A DNA stretch of 64,000 nt from Nitrosomonas communis (lineage in GTDB: Bacteria > Pseudomonadota > Gammaproteobacteria > Burkholderiales > Nitrosomonadaceae). Each line of letters starts with the position of its first letter. Position 1 is the first letter of the stretch. Position numbers and translations under genes: made by a program. The stretch is taken from positions 2,480,001-2,544,000 of the forward strand of contig NZ_CP011451.1 of NCBI RefSeq assembly GCF_001007935.1, given 5' to 3'. Below, in pieces: positions 30,382 through 39,405 of this stretch. The notes under the pieces are model-generated. The model saw only the letters and a program-made list of their open reading frames with translations. It searched no databases and was not told the origin of the DNA.

Positions 30382-31962
30382 TCATAGTCCTTCCCCTTTT
30401 GAGAAAACATCGACATCATTGAGAATCTCACGAAACTGTTCTAGGGCTGCCTCCAGATCCTCTACAATCTCCTGTGCAATCACATCCGGCGCTGGCAGAT
30501 TGTCTGAATCCGACAAAGATTCATCCTTCAGCCAGAAAATATCCAGGTTGATCTTGTCGCGCTTGATCAGCTCCTCATAATCAAAGGCACGCCAGCGACC
30601 GTTTACTCCCTCTCCTTCTGGGTTGGGGTGAGGGGCATTACCTCTCTTCTTCCCTTTCACCGTCATTCCGGCCTCCGAGCCGGAATCCATTTCTGGACAC
30701 CACGTGGGTGTACGGTTAAACCTGTTCTCAGGTTTGAAGCATTTCACAAACTCATCCAGATCTGCCCGCTTCAAAGGATTCGTTTTCAGCGTGAAATGCA
30801 TGTTAGTGCGCAAGTCGTAAATCCACAGTTTTTTAGTCCAAGGCGTCTCAGAAGCAGGCTTCTTGTCGAAAAACAGTACATTTGCTTTCACTCCCTGCGC
30901 GTAAAACAAACCGGTCGGCAAGCGCAGCAAGGTATGCACATCGCACTCATGCAGCAGTTTGCGGCGGATGGTCTCACCCGCCCCGCCTTCGAACAGCACA
31001 TTATCCGGCACCACCACAGCAGCGCGACCGTTCTGCTTGAGCAGGGTTTTGACGTGCTGAACGAAGTTGAGCTGCTTGTTCGAGGTGGTCGTCCAGAAAT
31101 CGCCGCGCTCGACGATGTCGCGCTCACGGCTCGCCTTGCCATCCTCGCCCACGATGGTAGTACTGCTCTTCTTGCCGAACGGCGGATTGGTGACCACCAG
31201 GTCGAAGCGGTCGCCGGGGTCGGCGGCTAGCGAGTCAGACACTACAATGGGTTCGAACTCCTGGCTGCCGATACCATGTAGCAGCATGTTCATGGCGCAT
31301 AGCCGCGCCGTGGCCTGTACCAGCTCCCAGCCCTTGAAGGTTTCTTCCTTGAGCTGCTTGCGCTGATCCTTTGTCATGTGCGGATTGTGCTTCACCACGT
31401 AATCGTGCGCCGCTAGCAGAAAGCCGCCGGTACCGCAGGCCGGGTCACTCACGGTCTCGCCGAGCTTCGGGACCATAACGTCGACAATGGCCTGTATCAG
31501 TGGACGTGGGGTGAAATACTGACCGGCACCGGACTTGGTGTCCTGCGCGTTCTTTTCCAGCAGGCCCTCGTAGGCATCGCCCTTCACGTCGGCACTCATC
31601 GACACCCAACTTTCCTTGTCGATCAGATCCACGATCAACCGGCGTAGCTTGGCTGGGTCTTGGAATTTATTTTGTGATTTATTAAAAATCAGCCCGAGCA
31701 AGCCTTTCTGATTGCCCAGCGCTTCAAGAGTGTGGCGGTAGTGGTCGAACAGCTCGTCACCGTCTTTTTTAATCAGACTCAGCCAGTCATAACCTTCAGG
31801 TACGGGACTCTTTTGGTGGTATGGTGCTTTGGTGCGCTCATCGGCCATCTTGAGAAATAGCAGATAGGTAAGCTGTTCGACATAATCACCATACGACATG
31901 CCGTCGTCGCGCAGCACGTTGCAGTAATTCCAGAGTTTTTGGACGATGGAAGATGTATTCAT
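30382..31962 (-). CDS. hsdM: Type I restriction-modification DNA methyltransferase HsdM
   Basis: HsdM methylates adenine in the target site and, with HsdS, forms the core of the type I enzyme. The 526-residue protein has an N-terminal HsdM_N helical domain, SAM motif DPACGTGGFLLAAHDY (about residue 175), catalytic motif VTNPPFGK (about 258), and C-terminal LDIFWLKDESL. Residues of about 415-452 are an extra insert made of two repetitive elements read in frame (SGSEAGMTV and APHPNPEGEGV). It is the last gene of the island, 18 nt after the helicase, so the modification subunit is encoded downstream of hsdR and hsdS, an unusual order. Confidence 0.95.
   Translation of the reverse strand: MNTSSIVQKLWNYCNVLRDDGMSYGDYVEQLTYLLFLKMADERTKAPYHQKSPVPEGYDWLSLIKKDGDELFDHYRHTLEALGNQKGLLGLIFNKSQNKFQDPAKLRRLIVDLIDKESWVSMSADVKGDAYEGLLEKNAQDTKSGAGQYFTPRPLIQAIVDVMVPKLGETVSDPACGTGGFLLAAHDYVVKHNPHMTKDQRKQLKEETFKGWELVQATARLCAMNMLLHGIGSQEFEPIVVSDSLAADPGDRFDLVVTNPPFGKKSSTTIVGEDGKASRERDIVERGDFWTTTSNKQLNFVQHVKTLLKQNGRAAVVVPDNVLFEGGAGETIRRKLLHECDVHTLLRLPTGLFYAQGVKANVLFFDKKPASETPWTKKLWIYDLRTNMHFTLKTNPLKRADLDEFVKCFKPENRFNRTPTWCPEMDSGSEAGMTVKGKKRGNAPHPNPEGEGVNGRWRAFDYEELIKRDKINLDIFWLKDESLSDSDNLPAPDVIAQEIVEDLEAALEQFREILNDVDVFSKGEGL
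30608..30636. repeat. G/C-rich interspersed repeat inside hsdM
   Basis: The stretch CCCTCTCCTTCTGGG through GGTGAGGGGC resembles the well-known proteobacterial intergenic repeat that, when translated, gives PHPNP..GEG. Here it is read in frame in hsdM as APHPNPEGEGV. It lies next to the REP-like palindrome at 30661. Confidence 0.6.
30661..30689. repeat. REP-like palindrome inside hsdM
   Basis: CGTCATTCCGGC (30661-30672) and GCCGGAATCCA (30679-30689) flank a 6-nt loop. The same palindrome occurs at 37288-37314 and, degenerate, at 36739-36765 within hsdR. In hsdM it translates as part of MDSGSEAGMTV. Confidence 0.75.
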
Positions 31963-31980
31963 TCTTGATGCTTAATCCTG

Positions 31981-33402
31981 TTAATGCGAAGGGTTCAATA
32001 TCTGTAAACTCGAACAAATGACAAGTGACTTTGAGCCTCTAGTCATTGCAACATACAAATTCCGCATATCAAGATTAGTCGCATTCAAAATGACAGCAGC
32101 TTCCGCCTCCAACCCTTTCAAGAGAAGAGTGCTTCCGACTGCACGCCTAGGGAGCGGGCGACCCTGCATTCGATTTTGTTCACGAGCCTGAGTCGCAGCT
32201 TCGTAAAAGGATAGGCTGGGCGTATTAATACAGGCATATAATGCTTTGATACATGCTCTTAGCACCGCTGGTCTAAAAACACGCACTCCCCCTTCTTTAT
32301 TTATCGCCACAAGTAGGTCAAGAACACCGCGATATGTGGGCTTTCGTACAAAATCAAGCGCCGCCCTTTCTACCTCAGAAGGCTCCTTGCGGGCAGCGCC
32401 TCTACTCAAAATATCTACTCGCCGCACCAAATCAGTTGCTCCAACGTTAGTCATTATACTTTGAGCAAAGTTTGCAATCTGAACAAGAGAGCCATCACGC
32501 TCTAGATTTAGATTGCGGGCAAATGTAACGAGGTCTCGCAAATCAACCGCTTCCACTGTCACAGCACCTGGCACTGAGCTAGCAATACGATGCCTGCTAT
32601 CGGCGTTAACACTGTCCCCAATAATCAGAACATGCCCATTATCGCCTGGGGGCTTTATCCTGGCAGCTTTCAGCATCCTCGCATGGTTATCTACTCCATC
32701 AAGTGGAATCCATTGCACTTGCGCCGGCGCAGTACTGAGGTCTATTTGTTCACCAGCTAATAGCTTTCGCCGAACATCAAGAAGCCATTCCCCCAGGCCC
32801 ACAGCTCCCGCATTTATCCATCTCCAAGGCCTATTGAGCTCACCTGCAAGCGGAAAATGTTCACAGACATGCTTTTCCCAATTAGCCAAGGCATCGGAAC
32901 CAAACCCAAAAATCGCCTGGAGTGGATCACCAAGCGCACATGTAGGTAGTGCCTGCGCTGCGTAAAAGACAATTGCATGTTGCCGGACAGAGCAGTCCTG
33001 ATACTCATCAACAACCAGGTGCGCATAACTGGCAGTGAGAATGTCATTAATATGCCCTCCCTTTAGTAGCGTGATTGCCGCATTCCTAATTTGCGGGTAG
33101 TCTTGTCCTGGATTTACTAGATGCAGTATTTCCTTCTCCAGTTTTGCTCTAGCCGGAAACATAGAAACCAGCCTAATTGCCCATCCGTCGATAGTTGCTA
33201 ATCGATATGTGCTTGAAGGAACACCCTCCCTGTTCAGACGATCTCGTAGCGCAACTACACCCGCATTGGTGTGTGTAAGAACAAGAATTGGTTTGCGATT
33301 ACCATGGCGCTTTAGTGCTTCGCTAATGAGGTGCGTTTTCCCACAACCGGCAGGAGCGGAGATTGTTCCTCGATTTATTTTCAATAAGTCGATCTCACTC
33401 AC
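31981..33402 (-). CDS. UvrD/Rep-type helicase, GajB-like
   Basis: A superfamily 1A helicase of 473 residues. Motifs: Walker A SAPAGCGKTH (residues 15-24), Ia LVLTHTNAGV, Walker B LVVDEYQDC (about 128), motif III ALGDPLQAIFG, and the C-terminal LLLKGLEAEAAVI plus LYVAMTRG. It lacks the long insert domains of UvrD, like GajB of Gabija systems (about 490 residues). The start is GTG 33402, which overlaps the end of the upstream nuclease gene by 8 nt (GTGAGTGA), a strong sign of coupled translation. Assignment to Gabija is inferred from the pair, not proven. Confidence 0.85.
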   Translation of the reverse strand: MSEIDLLKINRGTISAPAGCGKTHLISEALKRHGNRKPILVLTHTNAGVVALRDRLNREGVPSSTYRLATIDGWAIRLVSMFPARAKLEKEILHLVNPGQDYPQIRNAAITLLKGGHINDILTASYAHLVVDEYQDCSVRQHAIVFYAAQALPTCALGDPLQAIFGFGSDALANWEKHVCEHFPLAGELNRPWRWINAGAVGLGEWLLDVRRKLLAGEQIDLSTAPAQVQWIPLDGVDNHARMLKAARIKPPGDNGHVLIIGDSVNADSRHRIASSVPGAVTVEAVDLRDLVTFARNLNLERDGSLVQIANFAQSIMTNVGATDLVRRVDILSRGAARKEPSEVERAALDFVRKPTYRGVLDLLVAINKEGGVRVFRPAVLRACIKALYACINTPSLSFYEAATQAREQNRMQGRPLPRRAVGSTLLLKGLEAEAAVILNATNLDMRNLYVAMTRGSKSLVICSSLQILNPSH

Positions 33403-35104
33403 CAGCGTTGTCCACCCAGTTAAATATTCGATTAATTACCTCTCGAAATCCTTCCTCAGATTTTTCAAGATCAGGACCAACAATGTCACGACCCACGATC
33501 TCCATCGTACTCACGGTCTTAAACCATGAGGATTTTTTGGATTTCGCCGCCTTGGCAAGAATAGATCTATTCTCCTGAGTTAACTCACATTTGCATACCA
33601 ATAAGTCTTTTTTTCCGTCTGTCGCTGATTTAATATGGTCATTAATAACATTCTCTCCCTTAAGTTCAACCGCCAGTTCAATAAGTTTCAGGACTGCACC
33701 ATCAGAGAGGCTTATGAATATCTCATCTTCAAGCGCCCGACCTTTACGCCAAGCAATTACCTCTCCCCCGTCATTCGAGAATTCCTGTTCAAGCTCCGGA
33801 GCTAGATGTGCATCATCATCACGAAGCACAGCGGTTCGATATCCAAGTGACTGAAGAGACTTGGCGCGTTTAAATAAGAGGGTGCCGGTTCCATCGACTA
33901 ATCCCACGCCTTGCGCTGCAATCGATGGTCCTCCATTCACAATTCTGTGTTGGTCTAGCCCACGGATGAGTCCAACCTCGCTGGCACCCTCACAAACAAA
34001 AACGGATCGCGCAAGAAAAGCGTTTGGATATAAACGGATAGTGCCTTGAATATCGTCGTCAATGCCTACACAGCGTAATACGTGACGATCCTCTAGTCTC
34101 CGCATGGCATATAGCTGGGTACCCCTCAATTCGCGTAGTGCCACCGGTGAATGAGTCGTCACAAATAACTGAAGAAGCGGCTCCTTTTCCTTGGCGCCCA
34201 ATGAGTCCAGCAATCGAATAATGCGATGTGGCTCAAGACCATATTCCAACTCATCTACCAGAATAACTGTCGACTGCACTGCAGCCTTACGTTGAAGCCC
34301 AGCAATCAACAAACGCGTAGAACCGATTCCAAGAGAACGTAAAGGTATTCCGCTTTGATCATGGAGTGAAATTGTTCCCCCACCAACAGATACAGAATGA
34401 ATATCAAGCAAAGCTTTAACGTTGCCTCCGACCGGAATTCCAAGTTCTTTTGCTACTAACGTGACAGTGCTGAGCGTTCCTGCAAGTTGCTCTCCCGCTT
34501 CGTTCCCAAACGTAGCTCTTGCATCACGGACAATTTTTGCCAGTGCCGCTGACGCAGCAGCGCGTTCCTCTGATACGCGGTTCAAGACCGACCCCTGGCG
34601 CCAACTTAAGTTGTAATCCGCTATCGCTCCAATACGCGTCGGAGCAATTCGAACCCTGTCGTTCCAGCCAAGATTTCGTGTTTGATTTAGAGCCGCTGCC
34701 CGTTCTGAAACCAAAATCCATGATGGGTCAAGATCGCCACCAACCGTAAGTTGTATCGTCAGCACCGTCTCTAAGCCTGCTTCTGGCTCATCTTCAATCT
34801 CTCCAGTTGTCTTATTGAAACTTCTGAGGTACAGGCCGTATGTTTCAATACTTTTGAGGCTATCTTCGAGCTCCCCAATAGTCACTGCTATGAGTATTGG
34901 CTCTTCAACATTAAGTCTATAAAAATCTGTATCTGTGAATTGCGGGTTACGGCGCGCTCCGACGCAAAGGTCTATCGCATCTAATAGAGTGGACTTGCCA
35001 CTATCACCTGGCCCTATCAAACAATTCACACCATCTGACGGCATCCAATCTAGACACCTGATCCCACGAAAGTTTCTTATTTCAATCTTGCGAATACGCG
35101 CCAT
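33395..35104 (-). CDS. OLD-family ATPase/TOPRIM endonuclease, GajA-like
   Basis: The 569-residue protein has an N-terminal ABC-type ATPase (IEIRNFRGIR, Walker A GPGDSGKST at 31-39, later LGIGSTRLLIAGL and Walker B VILVDELEYGLEP at about 300, H-loop TTHSP) and a C-terminal TOPRIM nuclease domain (SVFVCEGASEVGLIRGL with the metal Glu, AVLRDDDAH with the acidic cluster). This is the class 2 OLD architecture, in which an OLD gene precedes a UvrD-like helicase, as in Gabija. GajA is about 580 residues, so size and order fit. It starts 15 nt after hsdS and overlaps the helicase gene by 8 nt. Confidence 0.87.
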   Translation of the reverse strand: MARIRKIEIRNFRGIRCLDWMPSDGVNCLIGPGDSGKSTLLDAIDLCVGARRNPQFTDTDFYRLNVEEPILIAVTIGELEDSLKSIETYGLYLRSFNKTTGEIEDEPEAGLETVLTIQLTVGGDLDPSWILVSERAAALNQTRNLGWNDRVRIAPTRIGAIADYNLSWRQGSVLNRVSEERAAASAALAKIVRDARATFGNEAGEQLAGTLSTVTLVAKELGIPVGGNVKALLDIHSVSVGGGTISLHDQSGIPLRSLGIGSTRLLIAGLQRKAAVQSTVILVDELEYGLEPHRIIRLLDSLGAKEKEPLLQLFVTTHSPVALRELRGTQLYAMRRLEDRHVLRCVGIDDDIQGTIRLYPNAFLARSVFVCEGASEVGLIRGLDQHRIVNGGPSIAAQGVGLVDGTGTLLFKRAKSLQSLGYRTAVLRDDDAHLAPELEQEFSNDGGEVIAWRKGRALEDEIFISLSDGAVLKLIELAVELKGENVINDHIKSATDGKKDLLVCKCELTQENRSILAKAAKSKKSSWFKTVSTMEIVGRDIVGPDLEKSEEGFREVINRIFNWVDNAGE

Positions 35105-35119
35105 ATTTAAAACCGTTTC

Positions 35120-36535
35120 TTATATATTTGCTTTGCATACAAAAGAAGAGTGCAAAATGCTTTGTCGAAGAATATCGGCATGCTGGAGGTTGGCATCCAT
35201 CTGGGCCTCAATTTTGCTCATGAGCGAGAAGCGGCGATCGATCTCAGCAACAATTCGGTATTGTTCAGTGAGTGGCGGTAGCAAAATAGGGTATGCTTCG
35301 ATGGCGGCTTGGTCGATCTTTGGCATCGTGCCAGATATTCCTTGGGCACGGCCCTTGAAGTAGCGACGTCCGAAATCGCTTTGCAAAGCAAGTTCGACAT
35401 ATCTTGGGACAACAAGCTGACAAACTCGGATTCTTATCAGCAAATCTGGAATGAAAGCGAATTTCTCCGGGCCGCTATAAAGAGAGGCTGTACCTACCAA
35501 CTCTGGCGTGTTCGATCTCTCAACATAGATGTCACCAGGCATTGCCCATAAATCAGCGACCTTCGCAGGATTAGCTACGGTTCGCTTGGTATTTGCTTCC
35601 GAGAAATCGCCTTCGGTGACAGCACTTAAAGTAAAAGCACGGAGTCCATTTGGATCGGTGGTTGCTTTTGCTGAATGTCCATTACGCAAGGGCTCACGCA
35701 ATAAATCACTTACCGATGCCCACACCCACCCCTCCGGCAGTTTAGGCAGGTCGGTGGTGTCTGGTGCAACGAGTTCTTTGTATTTGCCCTTGCCCTTCCA
35801 CTGGCTGCAGCGGGTTTCGAGGATGCGTTGCAGGAGTTGCTCGCCGGTCTCAAAACTGCGGCCTTCGCGGCGGGCACGTTCGGCTTCGGTTTCGACGAGA
35901 CGACCTTTGACGGCGGCTTTGAGGACGGCGGCTTTGTAGCGCTTGAGGTTGGCCTTGACGTGCTTGAGGATGGCGACAGCTTCGTCAAGGCGAGAGAATT
36001 GTTTTTCGATTTCCGCGACAATGCGTTTTTGTTGATTGAGGGGCGCGAGTGGAATCTTCAGTGAATTAATCTTTTTCTGATTCAACGAAGATTGATTCAC
36101 AGCGTGCTGCGCTATCTTCATAAATGTTCCGTTGCGACGATAAAAATTCAACAGATAGTGCAGATAGTAAGGATCAAGAAGTTCTCTCTTGGTACGCAGA
36201 AGTAGAAGATTCATGCCGTGGAGCAACCGCTTGTGGCTGGTTACGACAGCAGTCTTTCCCAAATGTAGATCACTGTTGATATGGCTGAAAAGAATGTCAC
36301 CGCGCCGAAGCAGGAACCTTTCCTTCTTCGATTCTTCTAACTCACGGACGTAGCGTACTCGCTCAAAATCTACGAATCCGTTTGAGATCGTCTCAATACG
36401 AGTGATAGGAATTCCAGGGGGTTCCTTCTCTTGCACGCATGTTAGTCCATTGGTAATTCGCTCAAGCACGTCGCCAAGCTCAGTAACGGTCCAGCTGGCT
36501 GGCAGTGAAGCTTGTGTAATTTCTGTTTTCATCAT
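35120..36535 (-). CDS. hsdS: Type I restriction specificity subunit HsdS
   Basis: HsdS recognises the bipartite target DNA. The 471 residues show two target-recognition domains: TRD1 (about 10-150) and TRD2 (about 250-400). Each is followed by the conserved helical spacer (PLNQQKRIVAEIEKQFSRLD at about 170 and PLTEQYRIVAEIDRRFSLM at about 420). The C-terminus ends at LRQSILHSSFVCKANI, shorter than many HsdS proteins, which continue with a GKLV-type tail. hsdR stops 8 nt upstream and the GajA-like gene starts 15 nt downstream. Confidence 0.93.
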   Translation of the reverse strand: MMKTEITQASLPASWTVTELGDVLERITNGLTCVQEKEPPGIPITRIETISNGFVDFERVRYVRELEESKKERFLLRRGDILFSHINSDLHLGKTAVVTSHKRLLHGMNLLLLRTKRELLDPYYLHYLLNFYRRNGTFMKIAQHAVNQSSLNQKKINSLKIPLAPLNQQKRIVAEIEKQFSRLDEAVAILKHVKANLKRYKAAVLKAAVKGRLVETEAERARREGRSFETGEQLLQRILETRCSQWKGKGKYKELVAPDTTDLPKLPEGWVWASVSDLLREPLRNGHSAKATTDPNGLRAFTLSAVTEGDFSEANTKRTVANPAKVADLWAMPGDIYVERSNTPELVGTASLYSGPEKFAFIPDLLIRIRVCQLVVPRYVELALQSDFGRRYFKGRAQGISGTMPKIDQAAIEAYPILLPPLTEQYRIVAEIDRRFSLMSKIEAQMDANLQHADILRQSILHSSFVCKANI

Positions 36536-36543
36536 GAAGCCAT

Positions 36544-39405
36544 CTATGCTGCTAACGTCTCGTTCAGTTCTTCAATGATTGCATTCAGCTGATCGCCGAA
36601 CAGCTGATACACTTTGCCGAGCCCGCCATGTTGCGTAAATGGTGGCAACTCGAAATCATCTGGCTCGATGCTGAGGTTAGCAGCGATGTGGTCACGGATC
36701 ATTTCGAGCCAGTGGGATTGTTCGCGGGTGAAAGGCTCTGGATTCCGGCCTTCGCCGTAATGACGGCCCTGAGTGGCTACCCAGGCATTAAAGTTGGCGT
36801 TGACACGTTCGGGGAACGGGATGAGTTCGTTGTCCTGGTGCATGGCAAAGCGCACCAGTGAAACCAGATCAGTGAGGATGCGGCGGCCAGAGGCGCCTTT
36901 GACTTTGGATTTTTCCAACGTAGCGTAGGCGTTCCACAGTTGCGATTCGTTCCACAGATACGGCGGCTTTTCAATAGCATCAGCGAGTTCTTTCACGGCC
37001 TCGAAGGTGAGGCGCTGTTTGTAAGGTTTGCTGTAGAGCACCTGCAAGGCGGTGATTTCGTCCTTGTGCGCTTGAATGAATTGCTCGAAGGATTGGACCA
37101 CACCCTTGGCGCGGTCGAGGGCTTCGGGCAAGAAGCCAACGTCGAGGACTTCATCGGCACTGATGATGTCGATGACGACTTCGTTTTTCTTTTTGATCTC
37201 AGTGAGTAGCGCGCGTAGTTCTGGATTGTAGAGTGGCTTTATTGCATCCTGGATGATACGCATACGGGCTTCGTTTATCTTGGCTTCTGGATTCCGGCTT
37301 TCGCCGGAATGACGGCTTGTCTCACCCTTATCTTCTACAGTAAAAAGAGAAGGAACTATGTCAGGATTGAGCGATTGAATAATGTTGTGGGCAAGATCTT
37401 TGAGGCTGTAACCACCATTGAGCTGCCGAATTTTTTGATCATCTTCGGGTTTGAGACGATGTTCCATACGTGCCAGGCGGACAGCGAGCGAGGTCAGCAC
37501 ATCGTCTTCAGTGTTGCCGAAGGCGACGGCCTGTATGAGTTTTTCGAAGCTGACGGTGGGCTTCTGTTCCATCGGGCGCGAGTCGGTCTTGTCCTGCTCG
37601 CAGACGCCGACAGCGTCGACGATGACGAAGTGGTCCTTGGCCTGGGCGTCGGGAGTAACGCTTTGCAGGTCGTCAGGCTTGATGACGCGCACGCCACGAC
37701 CTTTCATCTGCTCGAAGAAAGCGCGGGATTTGACCGCGCGCATGAACATGATGACTTCCACTGCCTTGATATCGGTGCCGGTAGCGATCATATCCACTGT
37801 GACAGCGATGCGTGGCATGGGGCTGGTGCGAAATTCATTGATGAGGTCTTTCGGTTTCGTGCCCCCTGCCCCATAGCTGCGGTAAGTGATCTTCTGGGCA
37901 AAATCGTTACCCTTGCCGAATTCCTCACGCACGATCTCGACGATATTTTCCGCGTGCGCATTATCCTTGGCAAAGATAAGCGTCTTGGGAACCCAGCTGC
38001 GGCCAGGGAAAATTTCGGTGAACAGTTTATCACGATAAGTCTGGATAATGGTGCGGATCTGGTCCGGGGCGACCACATTGCGGTCTAGCTGGTTTGGGTC
38101 GTAGCTGAAATTGTCGTCGAGCTGTTCCCAGCGCTTTTTGCGTGTGTCGCGTTCCATGATCTGCACTGCGTAGCCGGATTCCACCTTCGAACCTTTTTCA
38201 GTGATCTGGGTGCGGATGCGGTAGACGTCATAGTTGACGTTGACGCCGTCGGCCACAGCCATTTCATGATTGTATTCCATCACCAGGTTCTGGTGGAAGA
38301 AACCGAAGGTTTGTTTGCTGGGCGTGGCAGTGAGGCCGATGAGGTAAGCGTCGAAGTACTCCAGCACCTGCGCCCATAGGTTGTAGATGGAACGATGGCA
38401 TTCGTCAGTCACGATAATATCGAAGGTTTCAATCGGGATAGCCGGATTATACTCAATCGGTTCCGGTCGTTTGAACAGGCCACCGAGCTTGTCCACTGAT
38501 TCTTCCTCGAGGTCTTCCGCCAGTTCCTTGCCTTTGAGCATGGCATACATACGCTGGATGGTGCAGATGCATACGCGCGCGGTGGTGTCGATTATATTTG
38601 AATGTAAGCGTTGAACGATGTATTCCTCGGTGAACTTGAAGTTGTTGTAGGGCGAAGCGTATTGCTGGAATTCCTTGAGCGTTTGGTCGCCAAGGTTGCC
38701 GCGGTCGACCAGGAACAGTACCCGCCGGGCGCCAGCGAATTTGATCAGACGGTAGATGAACGAGATAGCAGTAAAGGTTTTGCCAGAACCAGTAGCCATC
38801 TGAATGAGTGCGCGTGGACGATTTTCCTTAAGTGATTGTTCCAGATTCTGGATGGCTTTGATCTGGGCAGGCCACAGCCCTTCTTCCCTGAGCAGTGGCA
38901 TCTGTTGCAGGCAAGCAAGAAAAGTGCTGCCCGTTTGATAATACTGCGGCAGGCTCTGCTGTACAGTGTGTGCTGGTGGATTAGGTGGATTGTTCAGCCA
39001 TTCCGCTAGCAGTCCAGGTGTATGGAATGCAAATACTGACCTCGAACGTGGAGCGGGATCAAGGCCATTGGTAAAGCGGTTTTCATTTCCCGTCGATTGA
39101 TACGAGAACGGCAGTGGATTGCTCCAGCGTGGCAGACCATCCGGCAAACCTTGCGTGTATTTGTCCGATTGCGTTTCAACGCCGGTGAGAGTTACGCCTG
39201 CTTTCTTGGCTTCGATTACCCCTACTGCTTTACCATCGATATACAGCAGATAATCTGCAAAACCATATCCAGTTTTCAGTGGAAATTCGCGAATGGCTAA
39301 GCCGCGTACGGCATGGATATTAACTTTTTCTGCATCGCACACCAACCAGCCTGCTGCCGTCAGCAGACGATCGATATTCTCCCTTGCGTGTTGTTCCAGT
39401 GACAA
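36544..39405 (-). CDS. hsdR: Type I restriction endonuclease subunit HsdR
   Basis: HsdR translocates and cuts DNA that lacks methylation. The 953-residue protein has an N-terminal PD-(D/E)XK nuclease (GYGFADYLLY, GVIEAKKAGV), an SF2 translocase (MATGSGKTFTAISF; IVTDECHRSIYNLW; GLTATPSKQ; MKGRGVRVI) and a C-terminal helical domain that docks on HsdM. Two REP-like sequences are read in frame, at about residues 698-706 and 880-889. The start is TTG 39405, without Shine-Dalgarno, and a TATAAT -10 box (39419-39414) lies so close that the message could be nearly leaderless. It is the first gene of the island. Confidence 0.94.
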   Translation of the reverse strand: MSLEQHARENIDRLLTAAGWLVCDAEKVNIHAVRGLAIREFPLKTGYGFADYLLYIDGKAVGVIEAKKAGVTLTGVETQSDKYTQGLPDGLPRWSNPLPFSYQSTGNENRFTNGLDPAPRSRSVFAFHTPGLLAEWLNNPPNPPAHTVQQSLPQYYQTGSTFLACLQQMPLLREEGLWPAQIKAIQNLEQSLKENRPRALIQMATGSGKTFTAISFIYRLIKFAGARRVLFLVDRGNLGDQTLKEFQQYASPYNNFKFTEEYIVQRLHSNIIDTTARVCICTIQRMYAMLKGKELAEDLEEESVDKLGGLFKRPEPIEYNPAIPIETFDIIVTDECHRSIYNLWAQVLEYFDAYLIGLTATPSKQTFGFFHQNLVMEYNHEMAVADGVNVNYDVYRIRTQITEKGSKVESGYAVQIMERDTRKKRWEQLDDNFSYDPNQLDRNVVAPDQIRTIIQTYRDKLFTEIFPGRSWVPKTLIFAKDNAHAENIVEIVREEFGKGNDFAQKITYRSYGAGGTKPKDLINEFRTSPMPRIAVTVDMIATGTDIKAVEVIMFMRAVKSRAFFEQMKGRGVRVIKPDDLQSVTPDAQAKDHFVIVDAVGVCEQDKTDSRPMEQKPTVSFEKLIQAVAFGNTEDDVLTSLAVRLARMEHRLKPEDDQKIRQLNGGYSLKDLAHNIIQSLNPDIVPSLFTVEDKGETSRHSGESRNPEAKINEARMRIIQDAIKPLYNPELRALLTEIKKKNEVVIDIISADEVLDVGFLPEALDRAKGVVQSFEQFIQAHKDEITALQVLYSKPYKQRLTFEAVKELADAIEKPPYLWNESQLWNAYATLEKSKVKGASGRRILTDLVSLVRFAMHQDNELIPFPERVNANFNAWVATQGRHYGEGRNPEPFTREQSHWLEMIRDHIAANLSIEPDDFELPPFTQHGGLGKVYQLFGDQLNAIIEELNETLAA
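36739..36765. repeat. Degenerate REP-like palindrome inside hsdR
   Basis: TGGATTCCGGCCTTCGCCGTAATGACG differs from the copy at 37288-37314 by two bases. It is read in hsdR as RHYGEGRNPE. One arm base change (GGAAT to GTAAT) weakens the palindrome, suggesting an older insertion. Confidence 0.65.
37288..37314. repeat. REP-like palindrome inside hsdR
   Basis: TGGATTCCGGC pairs with GCCGGAAT plus GACG around a short loop. It is the reverse complement of the hsdM copy at 30661-30689. Translated, it gives RHSGESRNPE, the typical protein signature of such repeats when they sit in genes. Confidence 0.75.

What the first reader, a model, noticed from the sequence alone, without database searches (positions are those of the whole stretch)
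30382..39405. Gabija-like OLD/UvrD pair nested inside a type I restriction-modification operon
Transcription order on the minus strand is hsdR, hsdS, OLD ATPase/TOPRIM, UvrD-like helicase, hsdM. Gaps are 8, 15, -8 and 18 nt, so the five genes look like one operon. The middle pair matches GajA/GajB in order, size (569 and 473 aa) and motifs (Walker A GPGDSGKST, TOPRIM CEGASE and RDDD; helicase GCGKT and DEYQD). Systems nested in hsd loci are known (for example prrC in EcoprrI). A Gabija module between hsdS and hsdM would be a distinct arrangement. It could couple the two defences: if phage inhibits restriction, the nested module stays as second layer, and hsdM at the end may tie its expression to that of the module.
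Basis: partly seen in the sequence, partly recalled or inferred. Interest (0 to 1): 0.75.

Follow-up and report, generated by a model that had tools for sequence, protein, structure and literature searches.

The report
Gabija cargo in restriction operon slot
A DNA-restriction operon of a probably ammonia-oxidising bacterium carries a second anti-virus system (Gabija type) in a spot, just before its last gene, where related operons carry many different defence genes, so the pairing looks like one exchangeable cargo among many rather than a special partnership.

Summary
In detail: on the minus strand hsdR, hsdS, a GajA-like gene, a GajB-like gene and hsdM lie head to tail (gaps 8, 15, -8, 18 nt). 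Both middle proteins match PADLOC GajA/GajB models end to end; they are a divergent branch, though PDB profile searches rank GajA and GajB first, by a narrow margin. The five-gene order was not seen again: none of 38 other loci of this branch that I examined is nested in an hsd operon. What recurs is the slot. Of 45 related operons with all three hsd genes (window included), all have the order hsdR-hsdS-hsdM; 42 have 500 nt or more between hsdS and hsdM, only 5 between hsdR and hsdS. At least 33 of the 42 hold recognisable cargo: DarTG, short Argonaute, retron, DRT, CBASS cyclase, Schlafen, Fic, PIN, other nucleases. Two syntenic same-genus loci keep flanking DNA at 92-95% identity but differ in hsdS and cargo. 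Best reading: a hypervariable defence-cargo slot now holding Gabija, a second layer by co-inheritance; direct coupling is unproven. Embedding in type I operons is already known (PrrC, tgvAB, DarTG2, Campylobacter rlo/mlo).

The parts
36544..39405 (-). hsdR, type I restriction/translocation subunit, first gene; HSDR_N, ResIII helicase and EcoEI_R_C domains; nuclease and helicase motifs present
35120..36535 (-). hsdS, specificity subunit; hypervariable except the central stretch
   Evidence: 40-43% protein identity to hsdS of the two syntenic loci whose hsdR/hsdM are 93-96% identical
35717..36056 (-). central conserved stretch of hsdS, the only DNA of the exchanged block found alike in the two syntenic same-genus loci (87-90%)
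33395..35104 (-). gajA-like gene: ABC ATPase plus C-terminal TOPRIM nuclease domain, catalytic-type residues intact (E372, E376, D429, D431, K529)
31981..33402 (-). gajB-like gene: compact UvrD-type superfamily 1 helicase, overlapping gajA by 8 nt
30382..31962 (-). hsdM, N6-adenine methyltransferase subunit, last gene
31963..35119 (.). cargo slot between hsdS and hsdM, here holding gajA-gajB
   Evidence: 500 nt or more at this position in 42 of 45 related operons
31948..36545 (.). block (hsdS plus cargo) that differs from the two syntenic same-genus loci; flanks are 92-95% identical in DNA

Best explanation
This is a type I restriction-modification operon of the architecture hsdR-hsdS-[variable slot]-hsdM. 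The slot between hsdS and hsdM is a hypervariable place where mostly co-directional defence, toxin or nuclease genes are gained, lost and exchanged; in this genome it holds a divergent but intact Gabija module. Shown: the genes, their order, the recurrence of the slot, the diversity of cargo, and different content at a syntenic locus of two relatives. Inferred: one transcript starting before hsdR makes all five proteins; HsdR2M2S restricts unmodified DNA; GajA/GajB act as a separate second layer on phage DNA that escapes it, probably on DNA ends left unattended by the host's AddAB-type enzyme. The cargo is replaced, with or without hsdS, by homologous recombination in the conserved hsdR and hsdM flanks. 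The link between the two defences is co-inheritance and shared expression, not a demonstrated physical or regulatory coupling.
For: 45 of 45 complete operons (window plus 44) have the order R-S-M; the S-M gap is at least 500 nt in 42 of 45, the R-S gap in 5 of 45 (Fisher 3.7e-16, not corrected for relatedness). In the 40 operons resolved by ORF calling, 65 of 73 slot ORFs of 150 aa or more lie on the operon strand. Cargo identities. Exchange at one syntenic locus: DNA identity of 92-95% ends at window 36546 (hsdR stop) and resumes at 31947/31948 (codon 5-6 of hsdM), with different hsdS and cargo in L057 and L058. Of 78 pairs of occupied operons with HsdM at least 85% identical, 14 share a cargo protein. 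Third-position GC: hsdR 0.61, hsdM 0.65, hsdS 0.50, gajA and gajB 0.40, so the cargo and its host genes have different composition. Occupied slots also on plasmids of other classes and phyla, 6 of 8 examined. Gabija identity. AddA/AddB-like genes in the genome.
Against: No expression or phage data. The related operons come from one order and are not independent, so the Fisher value overstates. Nine of 42 occupied slots hold nothing I could name. The PADLOC PDC families matched by several cargo genes were themselves found by embedding in immune systems, so calling them defence genes is partly circular. Cargo and hsdS do not always move together (L060/L061/L062 share cargo at 95-97% with hsdS at 40-44%), so a single 'hsdS plus cargo' cassette is not general. 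The R-S junction also holds inserts in 5 of 45. The composition of gajAB is ordinary for this window (23 other genes: third-position GC 0.295-0.587, median 0.448), and it is hsdR and hsdM that lie outside that range, so composition does not show that gajAB arrived last.
Confidence: 0.72

Rival explanations
1. Dedicated coupling: the Gabija module is a guard of this RM system, triggered when phage blocks restriction, or fed by the DNA ends that HsdR makes, in the manner of PrrC with EcoprrI.
For: Precedent: prrC in EcoprrI (PMC12707154 and PMC3874165, passages); tgvAB alone protects 10-100-fold less than the full five-gene cluster against several phages (PMC11411939, passage). Gabija in P. aeruginosa acts on linear DNA that RecBCD does not reach (PMC12407980, abstract and passages), and HsdR would make ends. 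PMC12255303 states that Gabija is activated by Ocr (passage).
Against: The pairing was not seen again in 38 other loci of this Gabija branch; relatives of the operon hold mostly unrelated genes in the slot; gajAB and hsdR/hsdM differ in composition. [quoted passage not shown] In PMC12407980 cos-only ends without end-binding proteins were not targeted. In the Rousset paper the passages I saw (12 of 16 places) concern PARIS, not Gabija, as the Ocr sensor.
Confidence: 0.13
2. Chance insertion: gajAB landed in the operon once and its position has no meaning.
For: The five-gene order is single in my sample; gajAB and hsdR/hsdM differ in composition.
Against: The same position is occupied in 42 of 45 related operons, by many gene types, mostly co-directional; all five genes are intact and tightly spaced.
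Confidence: 0.1
3. The pair is not Gabija but another OLD ATPase plus UvrD-type system with a different mechanism, lumped by PADLOC under the GajA/GajB names.
For: A single-sequence phmmer search finds no GajA or GajB in the PDB; NCBIfam has no model that passes its cut-off; the closest fold for the GajA model is Thermus OLD 6p74 and for the GajB model UvrD/PcrA, with GajB at rank 25; in the profile searches OLD 6p74 (2.4e-15) and UvrD (6.3e-12) come close behind.
Against: PADLOC GajA and GajB models fit end to end; with alignment profiles the best PDB sequences are GajA (4.6e-16) and GajB (2.2e-13) respectively; a gajB-like ORF lies next to the gajA-like ORF in 25 of 27 genome loci.
Confidence: 0.12

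Closest known systems
Gabija (GajA/GajB; OLD-type nuclease with UvrD-like helicase)
   Same: Two adjacent genes in the same order, ATPase-TOPRIM then UvrD-type helicase, similar lengths, catalytic motifs intact, profile matches
   Different: Divergent branch (PADLOC PDLC04168/PDLC04173 type): no single-sequence match to solved GajA/GajB; here inside an hsd operon
EcoprrI with PrrC (E. coli)
   Same: Accessory defence gene inside a type I RM operon
   Different: PrrC is an anticodon nuclease held by the type I enzyme and released when phage T4 Stp inhibits it; nothing of the sort is shown here; other cargo, type IC operon
tgvAB in the V. cholerae VPI-2 type I operon; DarTG2 in the EPEC RRDM island
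   Same: Two-gene defence modules embedded in a type I RM operon; RRDM authors call the place a potential recombination hotspot
   Different: There the insert lies between hsdS and hsdR (RRDM), or in a place likened to rloF between hsdR and hsdS (tgvAB); here between hsdS and hsdM with hsdM last
Campylobacter jejuni hsd loci with rlo and mlo genes
   Same: Intervening ORFs between hsdR-hsdS (rlo) and hsdS-hsdM (mlo) in a hypervariable region (PMC5183652, passage)
   Different: Described there within one species; Gabija not mentioned in the passages I saw; homology of the operons not tested here

Membership tests
Gabija | GajA: N-terminal ABC ATPase with Walker A/B and H-loop | tested here: met
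   AAA_21 6.6e-24; G31, G33, K37, D284-E285, H318 invariant in 19 aligned sequences, window included
Gabija | GajA: C-terminal TOPRIM with acidic residues and lysine | tested here: met
   OLD-like_TOPRIM 23.5 bits, just over cut-off 23.2; E372, E376, D429, D431, K529 invariant in 19
Gabija | GajB: UvrD-like SF1 helicase encoded next to gajA | tested here: met
   UvrD-helicase 1.7e-13; 8-nt overlap; motif I and II residues invariant in 19
Gabija | Full-length match to curated GajA and GajB profiles | tested here: met
   PDLC04168 residues 1-566 of 569; PDLC04173 residues 3-471 of 473
Gabija | Closest solved structures are GajA and GajB | tested here: inconclusive
   By sequence profile yes, narrowly; by Foldseek 6p74 OLD ranks above GajA and UvrD ranks above GajB; single-sequence search finds neither
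Gabija | GajA4-GajB4 complex, DNA nicking, phage protection | not testable with these tools
   needs biochemistry and plaque assays
Type I restriction-modification | HsdR, HsdM and HsdS all encoded and intact in one locus | tested here: met
Type I restriction-modification | Methylation and restriction activity | not testable with these tools
   needs methylome and plasmid restriction assay
MADS (methylation-associated defence system) | MAD2/MAD3/MAD5 equivalog scores | tested here: not met
   NCBIfam MAD2 125 bits against cut-off 720, MAD3 44 against 420, MAD5 31 against 400
PrrC-type guard of a type I enzyme | Anticodon nuclease homology, or activation by RM inhibition | tested here: inconclusive
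   no PrrC among the 25 best listed PADLOC matches of either middle protein; activation not testable here
Defence genes embedded in a type I operon | Module inside the hsd gene cluster, co-directional | tested here: met

The most novel reading that the evidence does not exclude
Type I RM operons of the hsdR-hsdS-x-hsdM kind, from Pseudomonadota to Actinomycetota and Bacillota, carry a dedicated docking slot for second-layer defence modules. The slot would be a standing device: cargo is swapped in and out by recombination in hsdR and hsdM, is expressed only together with restriction, and is safe because no HsdR activity can appear before the last gene, hsdM, is made. Cargo would then act as backup or guard when a phage defeats restriction, Gabija being one interchangeable example.
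Probability: 0.22. Interest if true: 0.72.

Novelty: new variant of a known kind. Interest (0 to 1): 0.47.

Why it matters
It replaces a one-off curiosity with a testable rule: one fixed position in a type I operon architecture that occurs in several phyla is filled in 42 of the 45 operons examined in this order, and the fill changes between close relatives. That makes the slot a trap for finding new defence genes (nine of 42 occupied slots hold nothing that I could name) and a natural experiment on whether restriction and a second defence work better when expressed together. It also warns against reading function into a single nested pair.

Tried and rejected
Operon coupling from promoter and terminator scans: chance-level counts, no use. 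MADS membership because HsdM, GajA and HsdS hit MAD2, MAD3, MAD5 models: rejected on NCBIfam cut-offs. Phage carriage: no match in 50,697 phage records; a first scan of viral contigs with the single protein found none, a second with the alignment found 7 relatives, none nested. 'hsdS and cargo always move as one cassette': rejected. 'gajAB is a recent foreign arrival': I held this from its difference to hsdR and hsdM and dropped it after comparing 23 other window genes, where gajAB is ordinary and hsdR/hsdM stand out. Composition against the whole genome: not possible. The link through RecBCD was checked in the genome: no RecB above cut-off, but a RecB-like ORF below it (AddA-like by my reading) beside a gene over the cut-off of TIGR03623, which I recall as AddB-like. 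Streptococcus thermophilus: the passages that I read (12 of 18 places) put Gabija in the same island as R/M systems and do not describe nesting (PMC11514479).

Limits of samples. Gabija loci: 28 found besides the window (two, 26 genomes), 27 fetched and read; one, in G588, split over contigs, was not. Several end at contig ends; in two of the 27 (L043, L055) no gajB-like ORF was found next door. HsdM loci: 79 other genomes matched, one locus each from 60 was fetched; the 19 left out were mostly fragments, contig-edge or below about 50% identity. Of the 60, nine (L108-L116, HsdM 41-43%) belong to another operon type and were dropped from the counts, and seven more lacked at least one hsd gene. 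Among the 45 counted, some genes are cut or partial (hsdR in L090 and L095, hsdS in L107). Four of the 45 besides L107 (L064, L090, L095, L105) were placed by tblastn only, and their slot ORFs are not in the 73. Plasmid records with related HsdM: 8 of 67 read, chosen near the top of the list for different genera; with related GajA: 4 of 314 read. Cargo ORFs sent to Pfam: 50 (of the first 40, 14 had no match at 0.01); to PADLOC: 20 (2 without match at 0.001, and several of the other matches partial or weak).

Full report
What is there. On the minus strand of the window, five intact genes follow one another: hsdR 39405-36544, hsdS 36535-35120, a gajA-like gene 35104-33395, a gajB-like gene 33402-31981 and hsdM 31962-30382, with gaps of 8, 15, -8 and 18 nt. 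PADLOC and Pfam agree on all five assignments; in NCBIfam no model passes its curated cut-off for any of the five. The genome is a single 4.07 Mb contig with two equal-scoring matches to the AMO family (PF02461). One genome labelled 'same order' (G107) has a contig of the same length, with the gajA hit at the same place, as the Hydrogenophaga sp. PBL-H3 plasmid NZ_CP044976.1. I therefore take the source to be a probably ammonia-oxidising member of Burkholderiales (the order of Hydrogenophaga is recalled); no call names it.

Is the pair Gabija? PADLOC models PDLC04168 (GajA, 570 positions) and PDLC04173 (GajB, 471 positions) fit end to end with E 1.7e-231 and 1.2e-190; the lower-numbered GajA/GajB models among the 25 best listed fit only in parts. 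A single-sequence search of the PDB finds PtuA and an OLD nuclease but not GajA, and nothing for GajB, so this is a divergent branch. With a 19-member alignment as profile, the five best PDB sequences are all GajA (4.6e-16 to 1.4e-15), closely followed by Thermus OLD (2.4e-15) and PtuA (1e-14); for the helicase the four best are all GajB (from 2.2e-13), followed by UvrD (6.3e-12). The predicted GajA fold (best model mean pLDDT 79, the other four 62-74, a middle stretch below 50) matches the Thermus OLD nuclease first and Gabija GajA chains next, at TM-scores of only 0.42-0.49. The predicted GajB fold (mean pLDDT 87) matches UvrD/PcrA first, with GajB at rank 25. ATPase, TOPRIM and helicase residues are invariant across the 19 aligned sequences, window included. 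I file the pair as a divergent Gabija module.

Does the arrangement recur? I looked at 27 further loci of this gajA branch from genomes. None has an HsdR, HsdS or HsdM homologue in the stretch held (about 8-22 kb; blastp 1e-4); the same five queries do find the hsd genes in the operons below. A gajB-like ORF is adjacent in 25 of the 27. Seven loci from viral contigs are likewise not nested; one has a 26% methyltransferase match on the other strand about 6.6 kb away. Four annotated plasmids show the pair without hsd genes in 5-kb flanks. So 0 of 38. The branch is on 314 of 72,556 plasmid records, 189 of them Klebsiella.

What recurs is the slot. I then asked what lies around close relatives of the window's HsdM. 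Of the window plus 51 loci with HsdM of about 54-96% identity (L057-L107), 45 have all three hsd genes. All 45 have the order hsdR-hsdS-hsdM. Between hsdS and hsdM at least 500 nt intervene in 42 (median of all 45: 2072 nt, maximum 7092); in two (L066, L076) hsdS and hsdM overlap directly, and one (L107) has 270 nt beside a partial hsdS. Between hsdR and hsdS only 5 of 45 have 500 nt or more (Fisher 3.7e-16, relatedness not corrected). In the 40 operons resolved by ORF calling, 65 of 73 slot ORFs of at least 150 aa point the way of the operon; one of the eight others is an integrase (L077). Nine more distant loci (L108-L116) were not counted; there hsdM comes before hsdS.

What fills it. By Pfam and PADLOC, with my grouping of related ORFs: DarTG in L061, L063, L069; short Argonaute with a SMEK protein in L067; retron III-A reverse transcriptase with PRTase-CE in L089; DRT UG17 reverse transcriptase with SLATT_5 in L085; CBASS-type cyclase in L092; AbiEi/AbiEii plus a PDC-S28 helicase in L094; PDC-S28 in L057; a PDC-S06 ABC protein in L080; GIY-YIG/DUF4357 (PDC-S14) in L060-L062; a 97-aa GIY-YIG protein or a relative in L068, L070, L071, L072, L075; YhcG-type (PDC-S02) in L065; PDC-M11A in L091; PDC-M36A in L077; Fic in L086; Mrr type IV in L073; a HerA-like protein in L096; Schlafen/AlbA_2 or a relative in L064, L083, L102, L104, L106 (also in L067, L085); PIN in L074, L084; HipA-like in L081; PLD in L103; and Gabija in the window. 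That is 33 of 42 slots. In L058, L078, L079, L088, L090, L095, L100, L101 and L105 I name nothing. The PDC families were found by others through embedding in immune systems, so those names are partly circular. On eight plasmids with related HsdM, an annotated ORF stands between hsdS and hsdM in six: a DUF262 protein in Gemmobacter, a GIY-YIG protein in Streptomyces, a HIRAN protein with a hypothetical one in Rhodococcus, hypothetical proteins in Pusillibacter (Bacillota; two more between hsdR and hsdS), AAA ATPases in Roseomonas and Pantoea (no hsdR-like gene annotated in the stretch for these two). Vibrio campbellii has 51 nt there, and Methylomonas has no hsdS annotated.

How it changes. Two same-genus genomes hold the operon at the same place, with the same upstream neighbours. 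Their DNA is 92-95% identical to the window up to position 36546, in the stop codon of hsdR, and again from position 31947/31948, codon 5-6 of hsdM; L057 lacks about 335 nt within hsdR. Between these points only the centre of hsdS (35717-36056) is alike, at 87-90%. The cargo there is an 841-aa helicase or a 685-aa unknown protein instead of gajAB. Pair comparisons show that hsdS and cargo can also change separately: L060, L061 and L062 share cargo at 95-97% with hsdS at 40-44%, whereas L065 and L070 share hsdS at 81% with different cargo. Of 78 pairs of occupied operons with HsdM at least 85% identical, 14 share any cargo protein (60 aa or more, E 1e-6). In the window, third-position GC is 0.61 for hsdR, 0.65 for hsdM, 0.50 for hsdS and 0.40 for both gaj genes, so the cargo and its host genes differ in make-up. 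Against 23 other window genes (0.295-0.587, median 0.448), gajAB is ordinary and hsdR and hsdM are the outliers. The difference thus speaks for separate histories, not for a late arrival of gajAB.

How it probably works. Shown: gene order, intact motifs, slot recurrence, different content at a syntenic place. Inferred: one transcript from before hsdR (spacing only; promoter and terminator scans are at chance); classical type I modification and restriction; an independent Gabija layer. In P. aeruginosa, Gabija acts on linear DNA kept from RecBCD by phage end-binding proteins (PMC12407980, a preprint, abstract and passages). This genome has no RecB above the curated cut-off, but a RecB-like 1156-aa frame (AddA-like by my reading) next to a TIGR03623 gene (recalled as AddB-like). 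Ends made by HsdR could therefore be contested between AddAB and GajA, but that is a guess. Because type I restriction needs HsdR, HsdM and HsdS together (also stated in PMC11411939), an operon with hsdM last can tolerate insertions ahead of hsdM: a polar insert would silence the system rather than kill the cell. That is my suggestion for why the slot lies there.

What is known. Embedding in type I operons is an established idea: prrC in EcoprrI (PMC3874165 and PMC12707154, passages), tgvAB in V. cholerae (PMC11411939, passages), DarTG2 in the EPEC RRDM island with the remark that the site may be a recombination hotspot (PMC12255303, passages), rlo and mlo genes in Campylobacter (PMC5183652, passage; rloA/rloB also PMC2928727, passage). 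For the tgvAB case the evidence on coupling is mixed: the embedded pair alone protects less than the full cluster against several phages, but a figure legend says defence does not depend on HsdR restriction. [quoted passage not shown] it may already describe this slot. Ten paper searches listed no paper whose title, abstract start or passages that I read describe Gabija between hsdS and hsdM, or the S-M slot as a rule in this operon type; several lists were cut, and the library lacks most subscription papers.

Verdict. The larger and better supported finding is the hypervariable cargo slot. I score it as a new variant of a known kind, of moderate interest.

Noticed in passing
window 37197-37532 (inside hsdR): A stretch of hsdR that includes the repeat-like peptide RHSGESRNPE (37285-37314); about 335 nt of it is absent from L057, where hsdR is read as two ORFs, and the pairs L071/L074 and L092/L094 also break alignment in the last third of hsdR. 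It may be a hotspot for small repeat insertions.
   Followed up: partly
window 30607-30654 (hsdM, C-terminal part): HsdM carries a stretch (residues 437-452) that looks like a translated interspersed repeat in frame; many HsdM relatives align only to about residue 425.
   Followed up: partly
window 30382-31962 and 36544-39405: hsdM and hsdR have higher third-position GC (0.65, 0.61) than all 23 other window genes compared (at most 0.587), so the hsd operon rather than gajAB is the compositional outlier.
   Followed up: partly
L068, L070, L071, L072, L075: A roughly 97-aa GIY-YIG protein (77-90% identical between loci) lies in the slot of five same-genus operons.
   Followed up: partly
L058:9757-11811 (+) and L078:6500-7921 (-): Large cargo ORFs (685 and 474 aa) without a Pfam match at 0.01 or a PADLOC match at 0.001; good candidates for unknown defence genes.
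   Followed up: partly
L117:7986-11142 (IMG/VR contig): A viral-labelled contig carries gajA with the gajB match spread over two ORFs.
   Followed up: no
G000:C1:3461956-3467225: RecB-like 1156-aa frame below the RecB cut-off beside a TIGR03623 gene; RecB not found above cut-off.
   Followed up: partly
plasmid collection: This Gabija branch matches 314 plasmid records, 189 of them Klebsiella and 198 predicted conjugative, so it moves widely; the 4 read lie outside hsd operons.
   Followed up: partly
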